From IMG/VR virus record IMGVR_UViG_3300032296_002019, positions 35,489 through 99,488 of that record: a stretch of DNA of 64,000 nt; one strand, written 5' to 3'. The stretch's first letter is position 1. Every line of letters starts with the position of its first letter. This document shows, piece after piece, positions 1,811-21,245 of the stretch. The position numbers and the translations under genes are program-made. The notes below the pieces were generated by a model. That model did not search any database. It had not been told where the DNA came from and saw nothing but the letters and a program-made list of their open reading frames with translations. The DNA comes from a virus.

Positions 1811-2722
1811 CTACTTCAACCCTAATTTAGATGTCAATATGGCATTGTCATCTTGAATAGTAGTGCAGCTTGTTGGTGTTGGTCCTACCCACCATAAAGG
1901 TAAGCAGCTACCTCCAATAGACCCCATAATAGGCCCTGAATTTGTTGAGTAATCGCAAGGCTTATAAGTGTACACAATATTGCAATTTGCATCCCATTGT
2001 GCCTGGTGGAATAGTCCAACCGTATGTCCTGATTCATGAGACACTGCTACTCTTATTCGGAGAGTATTAAATGACATAGTATTTGAAAACACGAAGCATT
2101 CAGGCGTTCCTCCGAACATAGAGCCAACATAAGCAATACCAGCCACACCAGGATATATTTCACTTGAAGTAGTAACAACTACTCTCATTCTTTTAGCTAC
2201 GCTTGCTGCTAAATAAACATTTTCATCTGTTGTAACAGTAATGTTATACTTAGCAAAATCTTTCTTAACACTATCGAGAATAGTTTGTATTTGTTCGGGT
2301 AATAATCCACTTGGTTGGCAATAGGTAGCAACACCATTATTCCAAGCACTACCAGCTGGTAGGTTATATCCATCAAAGTCAAGTAATAATACAGATGATA
2401 CAGAAGGTTCATTACCATATGGATATGGATCGCAAGCATCTCCTATACCATCTTTATCTGTATCCTTCTGATCAGAATTTCTAGTTCTAGGACAGTTGTC
2501 GTTTATATCCGGTACTCCGTCTTTATCGGAGTCTCTAAGCTTAGTAGATCCTCCTCCTGATCTAGCCATCTCGAATTCCTCAGCAGTTCTGAATGAATTA
2601 TTGCTTAATGGGCCAAAGTCACAAACTTCTGGTTTAGACGGTTTAGAAGGGGATATTTCTTTTGTGCAAGTTGCTACGAGTAAAGATGCAAATGCTAGGA
2701 TGAAAAGGATTTGTTTTTTCAT
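1811..2722 (-). CDS. Lipoprotein metzincin-type zinc protease with TSP3 repeats
   Basis: 303 residues. It starts with a lipoprotein signal (LLVATC, Cys19). Residues 64-98 carry two thrombospondin type 3 calcium repeats (DSDKDGVPDINDNCP and DTDKDGIGDACDP). About residues 228-238 hold HESGHTVGLFH, the HExxHxxGxxH zinc signature of metzincins, and a methionine turn follows (GPIMGS, about residue 265). Such enzymes cleave proteins outside the cytoplasm. TSP3 repeats are typical of secreted or surface Bacteroidota proteins, so the gene may be host-derived. It follows the tmRNA gene and precedes the small membrane cluster. A role in lysis, envelope degradation or superinfection control is possible. 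Confidence 0.85.
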   Translation of the reverse strand: MKKQILFILAFASLLVATCTKEISPSKPSKPEVCDFGPLSNNSFRTAEEFEMARSGGGSTKLRDSDKDGVPDINDNCPRTRNSDQKDTDKDGIGDACDPYPYGNEPSVSSVLLLDFDGYNLPAGSAWNNGVATYCQPSGLLPEQIQTILDSVKKDFAKYNITVTTDENVYLAASVAKRMRVVVTTSSEIYPGVAGIAYVGSMFGGTPECFVFSNTMSFNTLRIRVAVSHESGHTVGLFHQAQWDANCNIVYTYKPCDYSTNSGPIMGSIGGSCLPLWWVGPTPTSCTTIQDDNAILTSKLGLK

Positions 2723-2805: not shown

Positions 2806-2839
2806 CTTCGTTTTTCCTAACCTTAACCTACCTTTTGAG

Positions 2840-3349
2840 TGGAGATGGTGGGATTCGAACCCACGTCTCCGAAAGAGACAATAATACTAACGTCTCACAT
2901 GCTTAGTACTAATTAGTGTTCGTCTTACGTTAGCTCAACGAGTCATTTCGTAAGCTGGTACGATACTAATCTGCACCGTAAGAGGCCAACCGTATAGATC
3001 GGGGTCCACCACCTTGTTTTATGACTACAAGGAAAACTTTTGTTAGTGTTTCGCCCCCTATATCACTAACTAAGACGCTCAAAGTCGGCTTTGACCATTA
3101 AGGGAGCCCTCAATCCACAGTCCTTATTTAACGAGTCGATCGTGAATACTCAGAGTAGTTCTGTTCCTAGGTTACTCACCCGACGCGGACTAGGCTGCTA
3201 CAGCGTAGTCGGCACCAACGAAGTCCATAAGATCTTCGAAGGTCATTGTTGACATTTCGTCATTTACTGTTTGGTATCTTCTAAGGCAGTATACCCAAAT
3301 GCCTGCATGTAGTATTACCTCTGCATCCGGATCGATACCGGTCATCCCC
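2840..3349 (-). ncRNA. ssrA: tmRNA (ssrA) with unusually long tag
   Basis: The tRNA-like ends are clear. The 5' GGGGATG pairs with the 3' CATCTCC as a 7-bp acceptor stem, next to the T-arm GTGGGTTCGAATCCCAC. The 5' domain has the tmRNA-like GACCGGTATCGATCC and ACATGCAGG. The tag frame runs from about 3267 to TAG at 3190-3192. It starts (V)NDEMSTM, continues through TFEDLMDFVG and ends ADYAVAA, about 25 codons against roughly 10 in many bacteria. CCA is not encoded. The RNA rescues stalled ribosomes with SmpB, tagging nascent chains for proteolysis. At about 510 nt it is longer than the roughly 360-400 nt that is usual. The exact resume codon is inferred by comparison with the NDE start of the E. 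coli tag. Confidence 0.93.
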
Positions 3350-3352
3350 ATA

Positions 3353-3535
3353 TTACTTCAAACTAGAACTGTCCGGTGTGTTCTTACTGTCAGGATCCTC
3401 AGCAATTATAGAGGAACCTATAGTAGGCGTACCAGGTTCTTTTTTAGACTTCTTACCGCTAAAAGCGATATAAAGAACAGCAGCCCCTATAAGACAGAGA
3501 CCAACTACTAACAATACAAGATCTAATTTTTCCAT
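3353..3535 (-). CDS. Small single-pass membrane protein
   Basis: 60 residues. The N-terminal transmembrane helix (LVLLVVGLCLIGAAVLYIAF, residues 6-25) is followed by a basic patch (GKKSKKE) and a serine/proline-rich tail. The stop codon is only 3 nt before the tmRNA 5' end, and the start follows the terminator of the upstream structured RNA. It therefore sits between two RNA genes and is probably co-transcribed with the tmRNA. Function unknown. Confidence 0.6.
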   Translation of the reverse strand: MEKLDLVLLVVGLCLIGAAVLYIAFSGKKSKKEPGTPTIGSSIIAEDPDSKNTPDSSSLK

Positions 3536-3552
3536 TTTTTATAATTTTAAAT

Positions 3553-3584
3553 AAAAAAATCTGGCGGGAATACTGATTACCCGC
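3553..3584 (-). terminator. Terminator of the structured RNA
   Basis: Sense strand GCGGG (3584-3580) pairs with CCCGC (3568-3564) and is followed shortly by seven Ts (3559-3553). This is a standard intrinsic terminator and fixes the RNA 3' end. Confidence 0.8.
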
Positions 3585-3860
3585 AACCCCTGGACGGACC
3601 CCTTTTCACCCATAGTCCACAAAGATGATCAGTCCTTGTGTTGAGACTAGCTGGATTGACTACCAGCAACGCCTGCGGAGATCAGTTGCAATTTCTTCGG
3701 CGTATCCAGAGCACTGTTGGGTTGCGCATTCTACCCTTAGTGATGGTGGTTTTAACTCATCCGTCTGTGATACCCAACTCAACAGCTTTTCAGCTATCTC
3801 GCCAGTGCTTTAGCAGCTCTCAACCGCTTATTCAGCCACAGTTTTTCTTAAAAGAACTTC
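3553..3860 (-). ncRNA. Unidentified structured RNA gene
   Basis: About 300 nt on the minus strand with no credible reading frame and visibly higher GC than the flanks. Pairings I can see (plus coordinates): 3804-3809 with 3710-3715; 3773-3778 with 3716-3721, directly stacked on the previous helix; 3800-3803 (GGCG) with 3699-3702 (CGCC), which crosses the first helix and makes a pseudoknot; 3819-3824 with 3640-3645 long range; a hairpin at 3784-3795 with a GAAA tetraloop; 3663-3667 with 3650-3654. It ends in an intrinsic terminator. It lacks the RNase P CR-I and CR-V motifs, the SRP loop, a tRNA-like domain and a group I core. The 5' end is approximate. I cannot assign it to a known class. Confidence 0.7.
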
Positions 3861-3862
3861 TA

Positions 3863-3880
3863 CAAATGTATATATAAATA
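3863..3880 (-). promoter_or_regulatory. Candidate promoter of the structured RNA
   Basis: The sense strand carries the recurring TATTTATA (3880-3873) and, overlapping its 3' side, TACATTTG (3870-3863). The latter matches the Bacteroidota -7 consensus TAnnTTTG. No clear -33 TTTG lies at the right distance. The RNA would start near 3857. Confidence 0.5.
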
Positions 3881-3899
3881 TCTATAATTTATATTTTTT

Positions 3900-4211
3900 T
3901 TAAATATTTTTTTTGTTGTAGTTATCTAAATGTTTTTGAGCCCTAGCACATAGTTCGTAATTTTCGTATTTAATTAGGTTTTCCATGTTTGTATCTAGAG
4001 TTTCATAGAAATTGTAATAAGAAGCATGTAATGTTATTGTATGTATCTTAGTTATTATCTGGGCTATGGTTACTCTCTTTAAGTCATTCTCTATAGCATA
4101 GCATATCTTTTCTACAATAGCAGTAGACAATCCTTCTTCATGTTCTGCCATTATATTTGCAAAAGTCATATCATTATCTAGAACTTCTATTAAATACAAA
4201 TCAGAATCCAT
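3900..4211 (-). CDS. Hypothetical protein
   Basis: 103 residues, mainly helical and rich in isoleucine, asparagine and tyrosine. I recognise no family. Its start overlaps the end of the preceding gene by 11 nt, so it is the last gene of a six-gene run (6822 to 3900) before the RNA genes. The start MDSDLYLIEVLDND has no obvious ribosome binding site. Confidence 0.7.
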   Translation of the reverse strand: MDSDLYLIEVLDNDMTFANIMAEHEEGLSTAIVEKICYAIENDLKRVTIAQIITKIHTITLHASYYNFYETLDTNMENLIKYENYELCARAQKHLDNYNKKNI

Positions 4212-4566
4212 ATTTCTCCCAAATTTTATAGTACCAATCTAATATAAATTTAAGATCTTCAATACTAGTTTGACCTTTTAATGAGTCAATATATTGATCG
4301 CATTTATTTATTTCATTATTTAGATTTCTAATATTGTCGCTTTTTATTGTCTTTCTATCAAAGAAGTCCTTCTTTTCTTTTAACTTTTCTTTTAGTATAG
4401 GGATTTTTTTATCAGCCTCATTCTTTAAAATCTCCTCTTTAGATTTATTAACCATAAAAGCAGTGAGACCAGAAGCTCTTCCAGAAAATCTAAGCAGAGA
4501 ATCAGCTTTATCTTTTACTTTTAAAAGATCATCAGCCATTTTATCTATGCCTACTTTCCTTTTCAT
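4201..4566 (-). CDS. Hypothetical lysine-rich helical protein
   Basis: 121 residues, strongly basic in the middle (KEKLKEKKDFFDRKTIK), with coiled-coil-like spacing and a tyrosine/tryptophan-rich end (DWYYKIWEKYGF). It overlaps both neighbours by a few bases, which indicates translational coupling. No family recognised. Confidence 0.7.
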   Translation of the reverse strand: MKRKVGIDKMADDLLKVKDKADSLLRFSGRASGLTAFMVNKSKEEILKNEADKKIPILKEKLKEKKDFFDRKTIKSDNIRNLNNEINKCDQYIDSLKGQTSIEDLKFILDWYYKIWEKYGF

Positions 4567-5261
4567 TTTTTATAGCGGACTATTAGATCATCTCCAAAAT
4601 CATCTTTCTTATCACTCTGATCATAAATATAGTTATTTTCTAGGTCAATAGATTTTTTTATGTCCTCCTCATGCTTTACAGGAAGATCAAGATCTATTTT
4701 TACAGGTCTAACGTCCGTATAGTCTTCCATAACTGACAGTTGCTTTTGGGTGAATACTTCCCCTACGCAAAGGAAATAACAGTTATAGCATAGAAACTCT
4801 ACGTTCTCTAATCTCCAGTTTTTCTTATTGCCATCTTTAAAATTCAAGATCAGCGGAACTTTATAATCTATTAATCTTTTTTCTTTAAACCCACATCTAG
4901 AACATTGTTCTGGTAGTATGCAATGCTCTATCATTTGGGTTTTTAATATCTTTATAGACACAAAGGTTTTGGGAACCCTCTCTTCCATTATATCGATTAT
5001 AGAAGCTTTATCGTGTCTTCTCTTTCCAAATTTAGGAATACCTTTAGCTGCTTGATTTTTATGTACCTCAAAGAGAGTCTTTCCCTCTTCATTTCGATAC
5101 ATGTTAGCATATTTTTTATAGGTCTTAAAAGACACTCCCAGGAACTTTGCAGCTGCTTTATTTGAAAGAGTCTCTCTCATGGCCCTTTCTATTGTCTGTC
5201 TTTCTATATTTAAGTCCTGGCCTCTATTTGACTTCTGCTTTCTAAAAGACTTTATCTGCAT
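4563..5261 (-). CDS. Helix-turn-helix protein with degenerate HNH/zinc-knuckle domain
   Basis: 232 residues. Residues 24-55 look like a Fis/HTH_8-type helix-turn-helix (AMRETLSNKAAAKFLGVSFK). Residues 120-161 carry two cysteine pairs (CSRCG and CYNC) bracketing a segment laid out like an HNH nuclease (LILNFKDGNKKN, then RLENVEFLC). The histidines expected in an active HNH motif (L-D-H and PNCH) are replaced (LNF, YNCY), so it is more likely a DNA-binding zinc protein than a nuclease. The C-terminus is acidic and variable. A regulatory role in phage transcription or replication is a guess. Confidence 0.7.
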   Translation of the reverse strand: MQIKSFRKQKSNRGQDLNIERQTIERAMRETLSNKAAAKFLGVSFKTYKKYANMYRNEEGKTLFEVHKNQAAKGIPKFGKRRHDKASIIDIMEERVPKTFVSIKILKTQMIEHCILPEQCSRCGFKEKRLIDYKVPLILNFKDGNKKNWRLENVEFLCYNCYFLCVGEVFTQKQLSVMEDYTDVRPVKIDLDLPVKHEEDIKKSIDLENNYIYDQSDKKDDFGDDLIVRYKK

Positions 5262-5677: not shown

Positions 5678-6017
5678 AACAAAGTTTTTCTATAATATCT
5701 GTACATTGTTTGCATTTCTCATAATCTTCCATCTCAGGACGGGAATAATATTCTATTGCTTTTTTTAAAGCTGGTTCCCATTTGTCTTTAGATAAAGATA
5801 CGTAAACATCTTCATTTAATTTGAAGATCTCAGCATTTGATTTATTCTTTTGCAAACTAAATTTTATGGCTTCTATTAGATTATCAAACACTATTTTTTG
5901 AGTTTCAGGCATATCCGATATCTCACTGTAATCTGAGAAGTCTCGTACTGTATAATTCAAGAAGGGCACCACTCTTTTTTTTGCCACTTTTCTATCTTTC
6001 TTCTTGTTCATATGCAT
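5655..6017 (-). CDS. Hypothetical protein with CxxC motif
   Basis: 120 residues with a very basic start (NKKKDRKVAKKR), a helical core and a late CKQC motif, plus another cysteine at EKLCYEE. A start at the second methionine (MNKKK, 6011) is equally possible. It follows the WYL-like gene after 4 nt. No family identified. Confidence 0.7.
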   Translation of the reverse strand: MHMNKKKDRKVAKKRVVPFLNYTVRDFSDYSEISDMPETQKIVFDNLIEAIKFSLQKNKSNAEIFKLNEDVYVSLSKDKWEPALKKAIEYYSRPEMEDYEKCKQCTDIIEKLCYEERIRS

Positions 6018-6021
6018 GATT

Positions 6022-6822
6022 TTAAAAGATTTTAATTGCGTCTTTTATCACTGACAGTATGCTACTCTCTTGTAGAAGAGAGCTTTTAGGAGAATCATCT
6101 TGTGAAAAGTCAGATATACAGAATATTGAATCCATTAATTTATCTCCCTTAGGATTAAAATCAGCCCTAGGTGGAGTTTTAAAAGTTTTTGTGGCATCAA
6201 CATCCCAAGTCTTTATCCTGTCTTCCCTAAAGAACCTCCAACCTGGGAGGGCTTTTTTCTGAGGATTTTTATCTGCACTGACTGATTTACCTGATCCAAC
6301 CCAGGCACGTACATACTTTATACCCTTTTTAGATCCATATGCTACAGGCTGTACGTCTGTACGCCATCCTGGAGCCTCTTCTTCGTCCCCTTGATAGTAA
6401 AGCTTTACGAATCTCTTATTTGTTATTGCATCGCATATATCGTCTCCTTTGCCTCCTAGATTTCTTTTCTTAACTGTAGGGGGAGTAGTTGGAGGTTCTT
6501 TTTTAGTTTTACTCTTGGCAGTTTTAGGACCTACGTCAATAGTTCTAGATTTCTTTCCTAGTATATTCCAGTTAACTATTTTATCTTGTTGATATCTTTT
6601 TATTTCAGCTTTCTTACCTGCCTCTTTAGGAATCTCATAGGCTACTAAATATTTCTTTCCTTTTGTGTCTTCTACCTTGATAGCTTCTATGGTTTTCCAG
6701 CCTCTAGGAGAATCACTGTCGCCTTGATAATATACGGATACTTGAGAGCCAGAATCCAGCATTTTCTTAGCTGTGGCGTCATCAAGAGGGGCTTCTAATA
6801 GTAGTCTTAATAAATTTCTCAC
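6022..6822 (-). CDS. Protein with two WYL-like repeats
   Basis: 266 residues, probably starting at GTG. Two related modules are visible, about residues 20-92 and 128-212. Each has YYQGD, then GW(K/R)T, a glycine turn with KGxKYL/V, and a late (Q/E)D(K/R)I-W. This pattern resembles the Sm-like WYL domain, which binds ligands or nucleic acid in many phage and defence regulators. The modules are joined by a basic, proline-rich linker. There is no DNA-binding winged helix as in typical WYL regulators. It heads a six-gene run. The WYL assignment rests on pattern recognition only. Confidence 0.6.
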   Translation of the reverse strand: MRNLLRLLLEAPLDDATAKKMLDSGSQVSVYYQGDSDSPRGWKTIEAIKVEDTKGKKYLVAYEIPKEAGKKAEIKRYQQDKIVNWNILGKKSRTIDVGPKTAKSKTKKEPPTTPPTVKKRNLGGKGDDICDAITNKRFVKLYYQGDEEEAPGWRTDVQPVAYGSKKGIKYVRAWVGSGKSVSADKNPQKKALPGWRFFREDRIKTWDVDATKTFKTPPRADFNPKGDKLMDSIFCISDFSQDDSPKSSLLQESSILSVIKDAIKIF

Positions 6823-19592: not shown

Positions 19593-21245
19593 TTACATGA
19601 ATTGACTATAATCTATATCTTCTTTTTTATCTTCTCCTACAAAGTAAACTGTAGATTCAGTAGTTAGGATAGTTCCTGCTACGCTTGCAGCATTCTCTAT
19701 GGCTGTCCTAGTAATTTTTGTAGGATCCAGAATACCGCTAACCAAGAAGTCTTCTACTTCACCATTCTTAGCATTATAACCAACCCACTCAGAATTTTCT
19801 TCTTCACTAGCTCTTTTATCTACCTTACCGAGAATCTCATAAACATTCTCTATACCAGCATTAGATAAAATCTTTTTGAATGGTGCAGACAATGCCTTCT
19901 CTACTATCTTAACTCCCAACTCTTGATCATCGTTATCACATTCAAGATATGCGTCTTTAACAAAATCCTTACAGTTAATTAAAGCCATACCACCACCAGG
20001 TACAATACCTTGATCTAAGGCTGCTTTAGTAGCGTGTAAAGCGTCATCAACTCTATCCTTCTTCTCCTTCATCTCTACTTCACTAAGGCCTCCTACATTG
20101 ATTATAGCCACCCCTCCTGTGAGTTTAGATAATCTCTCTTGTAATTTCTCTACTTCGAAGTTAGATTTAGCTATCTCAATCTGAGCTTTTAGATCAGACA
20201 ATCTTTGTTCTATCTTTTCTATATCTCCTTTTCCGTCAATGATAGTAGTGTCTTTACTTGTGATATTGGTAACACGGGCTTTTCCAAATGCAGCCTTAAA
20301 CTCATCAGCTTTCATTTTATCTACCTTGTGACCTTTAGTAGGAGATATGACAGTACCGCCAGTCAAGATAGCAATATCTTCTAGAATAGCTGTTCTTCTA
20401 TCTCCAAAGTCTGGTGCTTTTACCGCACATACTTTTATAGTATTGTTAGCTTTATTAACTACCAACAGTGCCAACGCTTCGTTCTCAATATCCTCTGCAA
20501 TGATCAATAGAGGCAAGTTTTCAGAATGTGCAGCTTGAAGCAGCGGAAGAACGTGTGCTGTAGTGCTGAGCCTTCCATCATATAAAAAGATAAGAGGCTT
20601 TTCAAAAACAGTTTGCATTGCTGTGTTGTCTGTTACAAAGTATGGGGACTTATACCCACGCTCAAACATCATACCCTCAACAACTTCTAAAGTAGTTTCC
20701 CCAGTCTTAGATTCTTCTATTGCCACTACACCGTCTGTTCCTACTTTATCTAAAGCAGTAGCAATCAAAGTACCAATCTCAGAATCATTGTTGGCTGATA
20801 TTGTTGCTACTTGTTTTATTTGATCTTCTGATGATATATCTTTTGATATTGACTTAAGACCTTCTACAACTTTAGCAACTCCTCTATCTATTCCCTTCTT
20901 TACTTCAACTGCATTGGAGCCTTGAGTAATTGCTTTCATTCCATCATTGATCATTACAGTTGCCAACAATGTAGAAGTGGTAGTACCGTCACCAGCTTTA
21001 TCGGCTGACTTTATAGATACCTGTTTTACCATTTGTGCGCCAATATCTTCTACAGGATCTTCTAATTTAGAGAAAGCCTTAGCCACTGTTACACCATCTT
21101 TAGTAACCTTAATTGAACCGTCAGCATCTCTGATTATAACATTTCTACCAGCAGGTCCAAGTGTGGATGATACACTATCATTAATCTTATTGATTCCGCC
21201 TAATAACTTTTTCTTTAACTCTGTTCCGAACTCTGTCTTTATCAT
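19593..21245 (-). CDS. groL: Phage chaperonin GroEL
   Basis: 550 residues, full length. It has the N-terminal ATP-site sequences (STLGPAGRNVII, then DGVTVAKAF and AGDGTTTSTLLA with the catalytic Asp) and the family signature near the C-terminus (ALDQGIVPGGGMALI). The usual GGM-rich tail is absent; the protein ends EDIDYSQFM. GroEL folds proteins with GroES in an ATP-driven cage. The co-factor gene lies 3 nt upstream, so the phage carries a complete chaperonin pair, presumably for its own capsid, tail or enzyme proteins. Confidence 0.97.
   Translation of the reverse strand: MIKTEFGTELKKKLLGGINKINDSVSSTLGPAGRNVIIRDADGSIKVTKDGVTVAKAFSKLEDPVEDIGAQMVKQVSIKSADKAGDGTTTSTLLATVMINDGMKAITQGSNAVEVKKGIDRGVAKVVEGLKSISKDISSEDQIKQVATISANNDSEIGTLIATALDKVGTDGVVAIEESKTGETTLEVVEGMMFERGYKSPYFVTDNTAMQTVFEKPLIFLYDGRLSTTAHVLPLLQAAHSENLPLLIIAEDIENEALALLVVNKANNTIKVCAVKAPDFGDRRTAILEDIAILTGGTVISPTKGHKVDKMKADEFKAAFGKARVTNITSKDTTIIDGKGDIEKIEQRLSDLKAQIEIAKSNFEVEKLQERLSKLTGGVAIINVGGLSEVEMKEKKDRVDDALHATKAALDQGIVPGGGMALINCKDFVKDAYLECDNDDQELGVKIVEKALSAPFKKILSNAGIENVYEILGKVDKRASEEENSEWVGYNAKNGEVEDFLVSGILDPTKITRTAIENAASVAGTILTTESTVYFVGEDKKEDIDYSQFM

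What the first reader, a model, noticed from the sequence alone, without database searches (positions are those of the whole stretch)
3553..3880. Unclassified structured RNA gene with pseudoknot beside a phage tmRNA
Seen in sequence: about 300 nt with no good reading frame, higher GC than the surroundings, a -7-like promoter upstream and an intrinsic terminator downstream. It also has several mutually consistent helices, including two stacked 6-bp helices, a crossing GGCG/CGCC helix (pseudoknot) and a GAAA-capped hairpin. The RNA lacks the signature motifs of RNase P, SRP RNA, tmRNA and group I introns as far as I can tell. Together with the tmRNA it suggests a phage RNA module dedicated to translation or ribosome control.
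Basis: partly seen in the sequence, partly recalled or inferred. Interest (0 to 1): 0.85.

Follow-up and report, generated by a model that had tools for sequence, protein, structure and literature searches.

The report
Long-form manA RNA beside phage tmRNA
The stretch encodes a real ~300-nucleotide structured RNA, on the minus strand: an enlarged, previously unlisted form of the orphan 'manA' RNA family that uncultured phages carry inside their clusters of tRNA and tmRNA genes, which suggests a stand-alone RNA working alongside translation RNAs rather than the gene switch manA is filed as.

Summary
In detail: window ~3554-3860, minus strand, encodes a structured RNA. It is not unrelated to known classes. 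Rfam's manA model (RF01745) covers it full-length at 29.4 bits, below its 55.2 cut-off. It is a long form of manA, with a ~150-nt extra domain. I found 33 further viral contigs with it. A 25-sequence alignment gives 96.1% standard pairs and 41 of 58 pairs with changes on both sides, against 33-46% paired for slid controls. Ten sequences left out of the model score 243-268 bits. The reverse model finds Rfam-recognised manA RNAs full-length. The GAAA hairpin is real. In all five sequence clusters the RNA lies on the same strand as tRNA or tmRNA genes, usually within 30 nt, sandwiched between them or last before a terminator. A shorter manA RNA sits likewise in a Bifidobacterium megaplasmid tRNA array. 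Best reading: a processed, stand-alone RNA of a phage tRNA/tmRNA operon. Its biochemical activity is unknown; cis-regulation of the operon remains possible.

The parts
3554..3860 (-). Long-form manA RNA (approximate limits; CM match 3547-3865)
   Evidence: RF01745 29.4 bits over 3554-3856; own model R1 matches 3547-3865; covariation
3828..3839 (-). Conserved unpaired/P2 motif GUGGCUGAAUAA (manA 5' signature)
   Evidence: alignment; coordinates
3839..3845 (-). P1 closing helix, 5' strand (pairs with 3557-3563)
   Evidence: 6 of 7 pairs with double changes in A1; coordinates
3557..3563 (-). P1 closing helix, 3' strand (window pairing imperfect)
3812..3828 (-). P3 hairpin AGCGGUU-GAG-AGCUGCU
   Evidence: 99% paired, 5 of 7 pairs with double changes
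3783..3796 (-). P5 GAAA-capped hairpin
3760..3764 (-). P6 long-range helix, 5' strand (pairs with 3594-3598), encloses the extra domain
   Evidence: All 5 pairs with double changes
3594..3598 (-). P6 long-range helix, 3' strand
3608..3750 (-). Long-form-specific domain: P7 (3748-3750/3608-3610), P8 (3699-3703/3669-3673), P9 (3663-3667/3650-3654), P10 (3645-3649/3613-3617), P11 (3635-3640/3618-3623)
3681..3686 (-). Pseudoknot strand 1, ACUGAU in the P8 loop
   Evidence: Pairs with P12 loop 3572-3577; two pairs with double changes in 8-9 of 24 rows
3572..3577 (-). Pseudoknot strand 2, AUCAGU in the P12 loop
3564..3584 (-). P12 3' hairpin GCGGG-UAAUCAGUAUU-CCCGC (manA 3' signature); with the following U-run possibly a terminator
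   Evidence: 100% paired in 24 rows
2837..3349 (-). tmRNA, same strand, 205 nt downstream; frame at 3190-3351 ends ...NDEMSTMTFEDLMDFVGADYAVAA*
   Evidence: RF00023 59.6 bits; ORF; ARAGORN missed it
3353..3535 (-). 60-aa ORF with a hydrophobic N-terminus between the RNA and the tmRNA; no family match

Best explanation
The locus encodes a stand-alone, stable structured RNA (~300 nt): a long form of the manA RNA superfamily. Its 5' and 3' ends pair (P1), enclosing the manA core (P2/P3, the GAAA hairpin arm, the 3' P12 hairpin) and a long-form-specific ~150-nt domain held by P6, with a P12-loop/P8-loop pseudoknot. It is transcribed as one more member of a phage tRNA/tmRNA operon. Where it abuts tRNA or tmRNA it is freed by the enzymes that trim those neighbours; elsewhere its 3' end is set by a terminator. 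It acts in trans during infection alongside the phage's translation RNAs, most plausibly by binding a ribosome-, tRNA- or tmRNA-associated partner. Shown here: existence, strand, fold, homology to manA, and operon position. Inferred: processing and action in trans. Unknown: the partner.
For: Homology to manA: Rfam model on long forms; reverse. Fold; held-out sequences. Context in all five clusters: tRNA 4-9 nt downstream (L029, L004, L155, L157 and relatives) or 4 nt (L074); tRNA 6-11 nt upstream with tmRNA 7 nt downstream (L162, L166); RNA match beginning within about 17 nt of the tmRNA 3' end (L163, L182, L184, L185, L187) and then a terminator (L181-L190); tmRNA just upstream (5766-6233) with a 22-tRNA array downstream in L183; tRNAs 202-294 nt away on both sides in L154. 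In the directly abutting cases no terminator separates the RNA from the tRNA. Independent parallel: a manA RNA (41.5 bits) 18 nt after tRNA-Phe in the pMP7017 tRNA/tmRNA region, which the authors report from that plasmid's transcriptome analysis (PMC10832533).
Against: No transcript data exist for any long form. Short manA RNAs in cyanophage-like contigs mostly sit 20-170 nt upstream of ORFs, as a 5'-UTR element would. In the window a 60-aa ORF starts ~20 nt after the RNA, and in several relatives the order RNA - terminator - ORF would also suit an attenuator. No catalytic or binding activity is known to me for any manA RNA.
Confidence: 0.6

Rival explanations
1. Cis-regulatory element: the long form is a riboswitch or attenuator leader that controls expression of the tRNA/tmRNA operon (in the window, the 60-aa ORF plus tmRNA), as manA is classed in Rfam.
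For: Rfam class and Weinberg 2010 place manA in 5' UTRs. Short forms lie upstream of ORFs. The U-run after P12 in the window and terminators soon after P1 in L181-L190 resemble an aptamer-terminator layout.
Against: In L163, L182, L184, L185 and L187 the RNA follows the tmRNA directly, so it cannot lead it. The terminator stems begin after the P1 3' strand, so I see no mutually exclusive pairing. In L029, L004, L157, L074, L162 and others the next gene is a tRNA or tmRNA 4-9 nt away with no terminator.
Confidence: 0.25
2. An unrelated phage RNA class that resembles manA only in two short motifs (GUGRCYGAAUAA and the 3' hairpin) by convergence.
For: The long form never reaches RF01745's gathering score. 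R1 does not find the pMP7017 manA. The P6-P11 domain is not shared, and many short loci were fetched with the shared motifs.
Against: Rfam's model, built by others, matches the window full-length at E 1.1e-5. R1 matches Rfam-recognised manA RNAs full-length at up to 55.5 bits, with noise at or below 8.5. P1, P2, P3 and P12 sit in the same order and pair in short forms (80-100% of cells).
Confidence: 0.08
3. Degenerate or chance structure, no functional RNA.
For: Single-sequence folding energy is average (z -0.17).
Against: 41 of 58 pairs with double changes and 96.1% pairing against 33-46% for slid partners; ten held-out sequences at 243-268 bits.
Confidence: 0.01

Closest known systems
manA RNA (Rfam RF01745; Weinberg et al. 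2010)
   Same: GUGRCYGAAUAA and GGGUAnnCAGUAnUCCC motifs, P1 closing helix, P2/P3, GAAA hairpin, 3' hairpin, and a loop-loop pseudoknot perhaps comparable to the published 'pseudoknot?'
   Different: ~300 nt against ~200 nt; an extra P6-P11 domain; score below the family cut-off; tRNA/tmRNA operon context instead of the 5' UTR of a metabolic, gp32-like or transaldolase-like gene
manA RNA in the tRNA/tmRNA region of Bifidobacterium megaplasmid pMP7017 (PMC10832533)
   Same: manA-type RNA inside a tRNA array near a tmRNA, on a mobile element
   Different: Short form of 175 nt, 41.5 bits to RF01745, not matched by R1
GOLLD and ROOL RNAs
   Same: Large non-coding RNAs of phages and prophages, often near tRNA islands, function unknown (PMC12286853)
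   Different: Unrelated sequence and fold: no GOLLD or ROOL match; about half the length or less
tmRNA (RF00023)
   Same: Neighbour on the same strand in the same operon
   Different: No tRNA-like domain or tag frame in the RNA; no RF00023 match to it

Membership tests
manA RNA (RF01745) | Rfam gathering score of 55.2 bits reached | tested here: not met
   29.4 bits in the window; at most 32 bits in other long forms; none over the cut-off
manA RNA (RF01745) | Full-length match to the family model above noise | tested here: met
   Model positions 1-192, E 1.1e-5; L074 29.4 bits; L004 31.7 bits
manA RNA (RF01745) | Conserved core: closing helix, GUGaCUGAAUAA, P2/P3, 3' hairpin with CAGUA loop | tested here: met
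   Alignment; shared helices paired in both forms
manA RNA (RF01745) | Multistem central domain as in the Rfam consensus (extra hairpins inside the central helix) | tested here: not met
   Central helix encloses only the GAAA hairpin; P6-P11 is a separate domain
manA RNA (RF01745) | Location in the 5' UTR of a protein gene | tested here: inconclusive
   A 60-aa ORF starts ~20 nt downstream in the window, but relatives have tRNA, tmRNA or a terminator next
Riboswitch | Ligand-dependent change in gene expression | not testable with these tools
   Needs binding and reporter assays; no ligand is reported for manA in the papers read
GOLLD / ROOL | Match to the Rfam model | tested here: not met
   No match up to E 10 over 3350-4000
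RNase P, SRP, tmRNA, group I intron | Match to the Rfam model | tested here: not met
   Only manA and two chance-level hits up to E 10

The most novel reading that the evidence does not exclude
manA RNAs as a whole are not metabolite riboswitches. They are a superfamily of mobile-element RNAs, comparable in genomic habit to GOLLD and ROOL, that act in trans with phage or plasmid tRNAs and tmRNA during translation takeover; the 5'-UTR placements in cyanophages would be secondary.
Probability: 0.3. Interest if true: 0.82.

Novelty: new variant of a known kind. Interest (0 to 1): 0.6.

Why it matters
manA has been a riboswitch candidate without a known ligand since 2010. Finding an enlarged form, invisible at Rfam's cut-off, as a regular resident of phage tRNA/tmRNA operons in five divergent clusters, with a short form in a plasmid tRNA array, gives the orphan family a new and testable context: translation support by mobile elements. 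It also adds a ~300-nt RNA to the short list of large structured phage RNAs found at tRNA islands.

Tried and rejected
BLAST for relatives in cultured phages and plasmids: none. Bacterial genomes: one pattern match, L169, unrelated in alignment and not found by R1. Phages related through the tail sheath (Microcystis phage Mel-JY01, Flavobacterium phage immuto_3-5A, LR756508, RM378, S-H38): no long form (a 10.3-bit hit in RM378 is noise). Promoter motif TAnnTTTG: at chance level. A boxA-like element TGTTCTTTGACA 26-28 nt before the 5' motif: 11-12 of 12 matches in two related groups and L154, but not better than shuffles in the window and absent in L163, so kept only as a lead. L180: matched the pattern by chance, no R1 hit. 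Coding potential: ORFs across the RNA differ in frame between the window and L163.

Full report
WHAT IS THERE. The window is bases 35489-99488 of a 99,488-base uncultured virus record. The phage has a contractile tail: its tail sheath is closest to Microcystis phage Mel-JY01 (40%) and Flavobacterium phages (45% over half). Its host is not settled. Around the finding the clear genes run on the minus strand: ORF 4211-3900, the RNA 3860-3554, a 60-aa ORF 3535-3353, the tmRNA 3349-2837, then a metalloprotease-like ORF. Two tRNAs lie about 5 kb further downstream on the same strand.

IDENTITY. At gathering thresholds Rfam reports only the tmRNA. With permissive thresholds the manA model RF01745 matches 3856-3554 minus full-length, 29.4 bits, E 1.1e-5, with both family signatures intact: GUGGCUGAAUAA and the hairpin GCGGGUAAUCAGUAUUCCCGC. 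The family cut-off is 55.2 bits, so this is a divergent relative and not a listed member.

RELATIVES. Pattern scans of IMG/VR gave 33 further contigs with the long form; ones with the short form came. Searches of cultured phages, plasmids and 84,980 bacterial species gave no long form. Long-form relatives are 47-89% identical to the window and fall into five clusters at 80% identity.

STRUCTURE. On 16 sequences RNAalifold predicts 62 pairs, 45 of them with compensatory double changes. Counting gives 94.5% standard pairs against 38-44% when partners are slid, with covariation above all 500 shuffles. A model from these 16 (R1) recognised ten further full-length sequences at 243-268 bits and one truncated one at 181; these pair at 92.1%. 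With 25 sequences and the pseudoknot included: 96.1% paired, 41 of 58 pairs with double changes. The counts measure sequences, not independent events, but changes occur in parallel in several clusters. Helices: P1 closes the RNA; P2/P3; a central arm ending in a GAAA hairpin; P6 encloses P7-P11; P12 is the 3' hairpin. P1 is drawn from A1; it is less well aligned and imperfect in the window. A pseudoknot joins the P12 loop (AUCAGU) to the P8 loop (ACUGAU). It changes together to AUCGUU with an ACGAU-bearing loop in nine fetched loci and to AUCAU/AUGAU in L186, with two pairs showing double changes.

RELATION TO manA. The reverse test also works. R1 matches short manA RNAs full-length at 19.9-55.5 bits while the best unrelated hits in 557 kb reach 8.5 bits; of 30 contigs scanned with RF01745, 17 carry a manA RNA above Rfam's own cut-off. 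Many short loci were fetched by their shared motifs, so this test alone is partly circular; the Rfam hit on the window is not. In 30 short forms aligned to R1 the shared helices P2, P3 and P12 pair in 94-100% of cells and P1 in 80%, while P4 and P6 are weaker (66-70%). So the core is shared and the P6-P11 domain is specific to the long form.

CONTEXT. Of the 33 contigs, 29 have a tRNA or tmRNA on the same strand in the DNA held; the other four (L161, L179, L189, L190) are end-truncated or have little DNA held on one side, and L179 starts inside what reads as a tmRNA 3' end. The arrangement varies. The RNA is followed by tRNA-Arg or tRNA-Thr (L029, L032, L045, L004, L155-L158, L164) or tRNA-Met (L074) within 4-9 nt of the trimmed match. 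It lies between a tRNA and a tmRNA (L162, L166). It follows a tmRNA directly (L163, L182, L184, L185, L187), often with its own terminator and sometimes another tRNA after that. In L183 a tmRNA precedes it and a 22-tRNA array follows. L007 is looser (tRNA 983 nt away), and L154 has tRNAs at 202 and 294 nt. An RNA that follows a tmRNA cannot be its leader, and a tRNA or tmRNA a few bases away calls for processing at that end. In contrast, most short manA elements in cyanophage-like contigs lie 20-170 nt upstream of an ORF, among them gp32-like and transaldolase-like proteins as I read them from sequence. A short manA in a Bifidobacterium megaplasmid lies 18 nt after tRNA-Phe, inside a tRNA array with a tmRNA, and 96-99% identical copies lie in five B. 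longum plasmid records. The published account reports it from transcriptome analysis and calls it a cis-regulatory motif (PMC10832533).

MECHANISM. I commit to a stand-alone RNA transcribed in the tRNA/tmRNA operon, released by neighbour processing or terminated on its own, acting in trans beside the translation RNAs (0.6). Shown: existence, strand, fold, homology, operon position. Inferred: processing, stability, trans action. Unknown: partner and phenotype. The main rival is a cis-acting regulator of that operon (0.25).

NOVELTY. Known: manA and its core (PMC2864571, PMC7779021), one instance inside a tRNA array (PMC10832533), and other large RNAs at tRNA islands (PMC12286853). I found no description, in the open-access papers searched, of the long form, its domain, its pseudoknot or its regular place beside phage tmRNA. 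Subscription papers and supplements could not be searched. I rate it a new variant of a known kind.

Noticed in passing
L074:1728-1875: A second, compact (~140 nt) manA-like RNA lies between tRNA-Met and tRNA-Leu, with a 7-bp closing helix GCCAGAG/CUCUGGC and GUGGCGGAAUAA (23.5 bits to RF01745, 19.5 bits to R1).
   Followed up: partly
L029, L032, L045, L004, L155, L157, L158, L160, L162, L166, L154: 26-28 nt before the 5' motif: A boxA-like sequence (TGTTCTTTGACA / CGTTCTTTGAAA, 11-12 of 12) precedes the RNA, as in antiterminated stable-RNA operons; absent or at chance level in the window, L163 and L007.
   Followed up: partly
L007:1700-1800 (minus): About 20 nt after the long RNA is a short tRNA-like element (CACTGAG...GGGTTCGAATCCC...CTCAGTG) that ARAGORN and Rfam do not call as a tRNA.
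   Followed up: no
L160, L162, L165, L166, L168: The tRNA just upstream of the long RNA has an unassigned two-base anticodon call ('ct'), an unusual anticodon loop in several related phages.
   Followed up: no
L074:690-1330: An ORF that I read as a GIY-YIG homing endonuclease (MAKQTYGTRKKYHYIYKTTNLLSGRYYVGMHS...) lies between tmRNA and long RNA; the same C-terminal reading (EGWYRGRVL) precedes the RNA in L189.
   Followed up: no
L110, L120, L125, L131, L103 and others: Short manA elements in cyanophage-like contigs lie upstream of gp32-like (MSFASLKK...) and transaldolase-like ORFs, and of an uncharacterised 84-aa ORF in L016/L107/L073/L140.
   Followed up: partly
window 2837-3349 (minus): ARAGORN misses this tmRNA and Rfam finds it at 59.6 bits; its apparent tag is long (NDEMSTMTFEDLMDFVGADYAVAA), as in related phages.
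   Followed up: partly
window 1811-2722 (minus): Metalloprotease-like protein with a thrombospondin type 3 repeat next to the tmRNA.
   Followed up: no
window 19593-21245 and 4563-5261 (minus): The phage carries its own GroEL chaperonin (E 8e-144) and an HNH endonuclease with a Fis-type HTH near the RNA.
   Followed up: no
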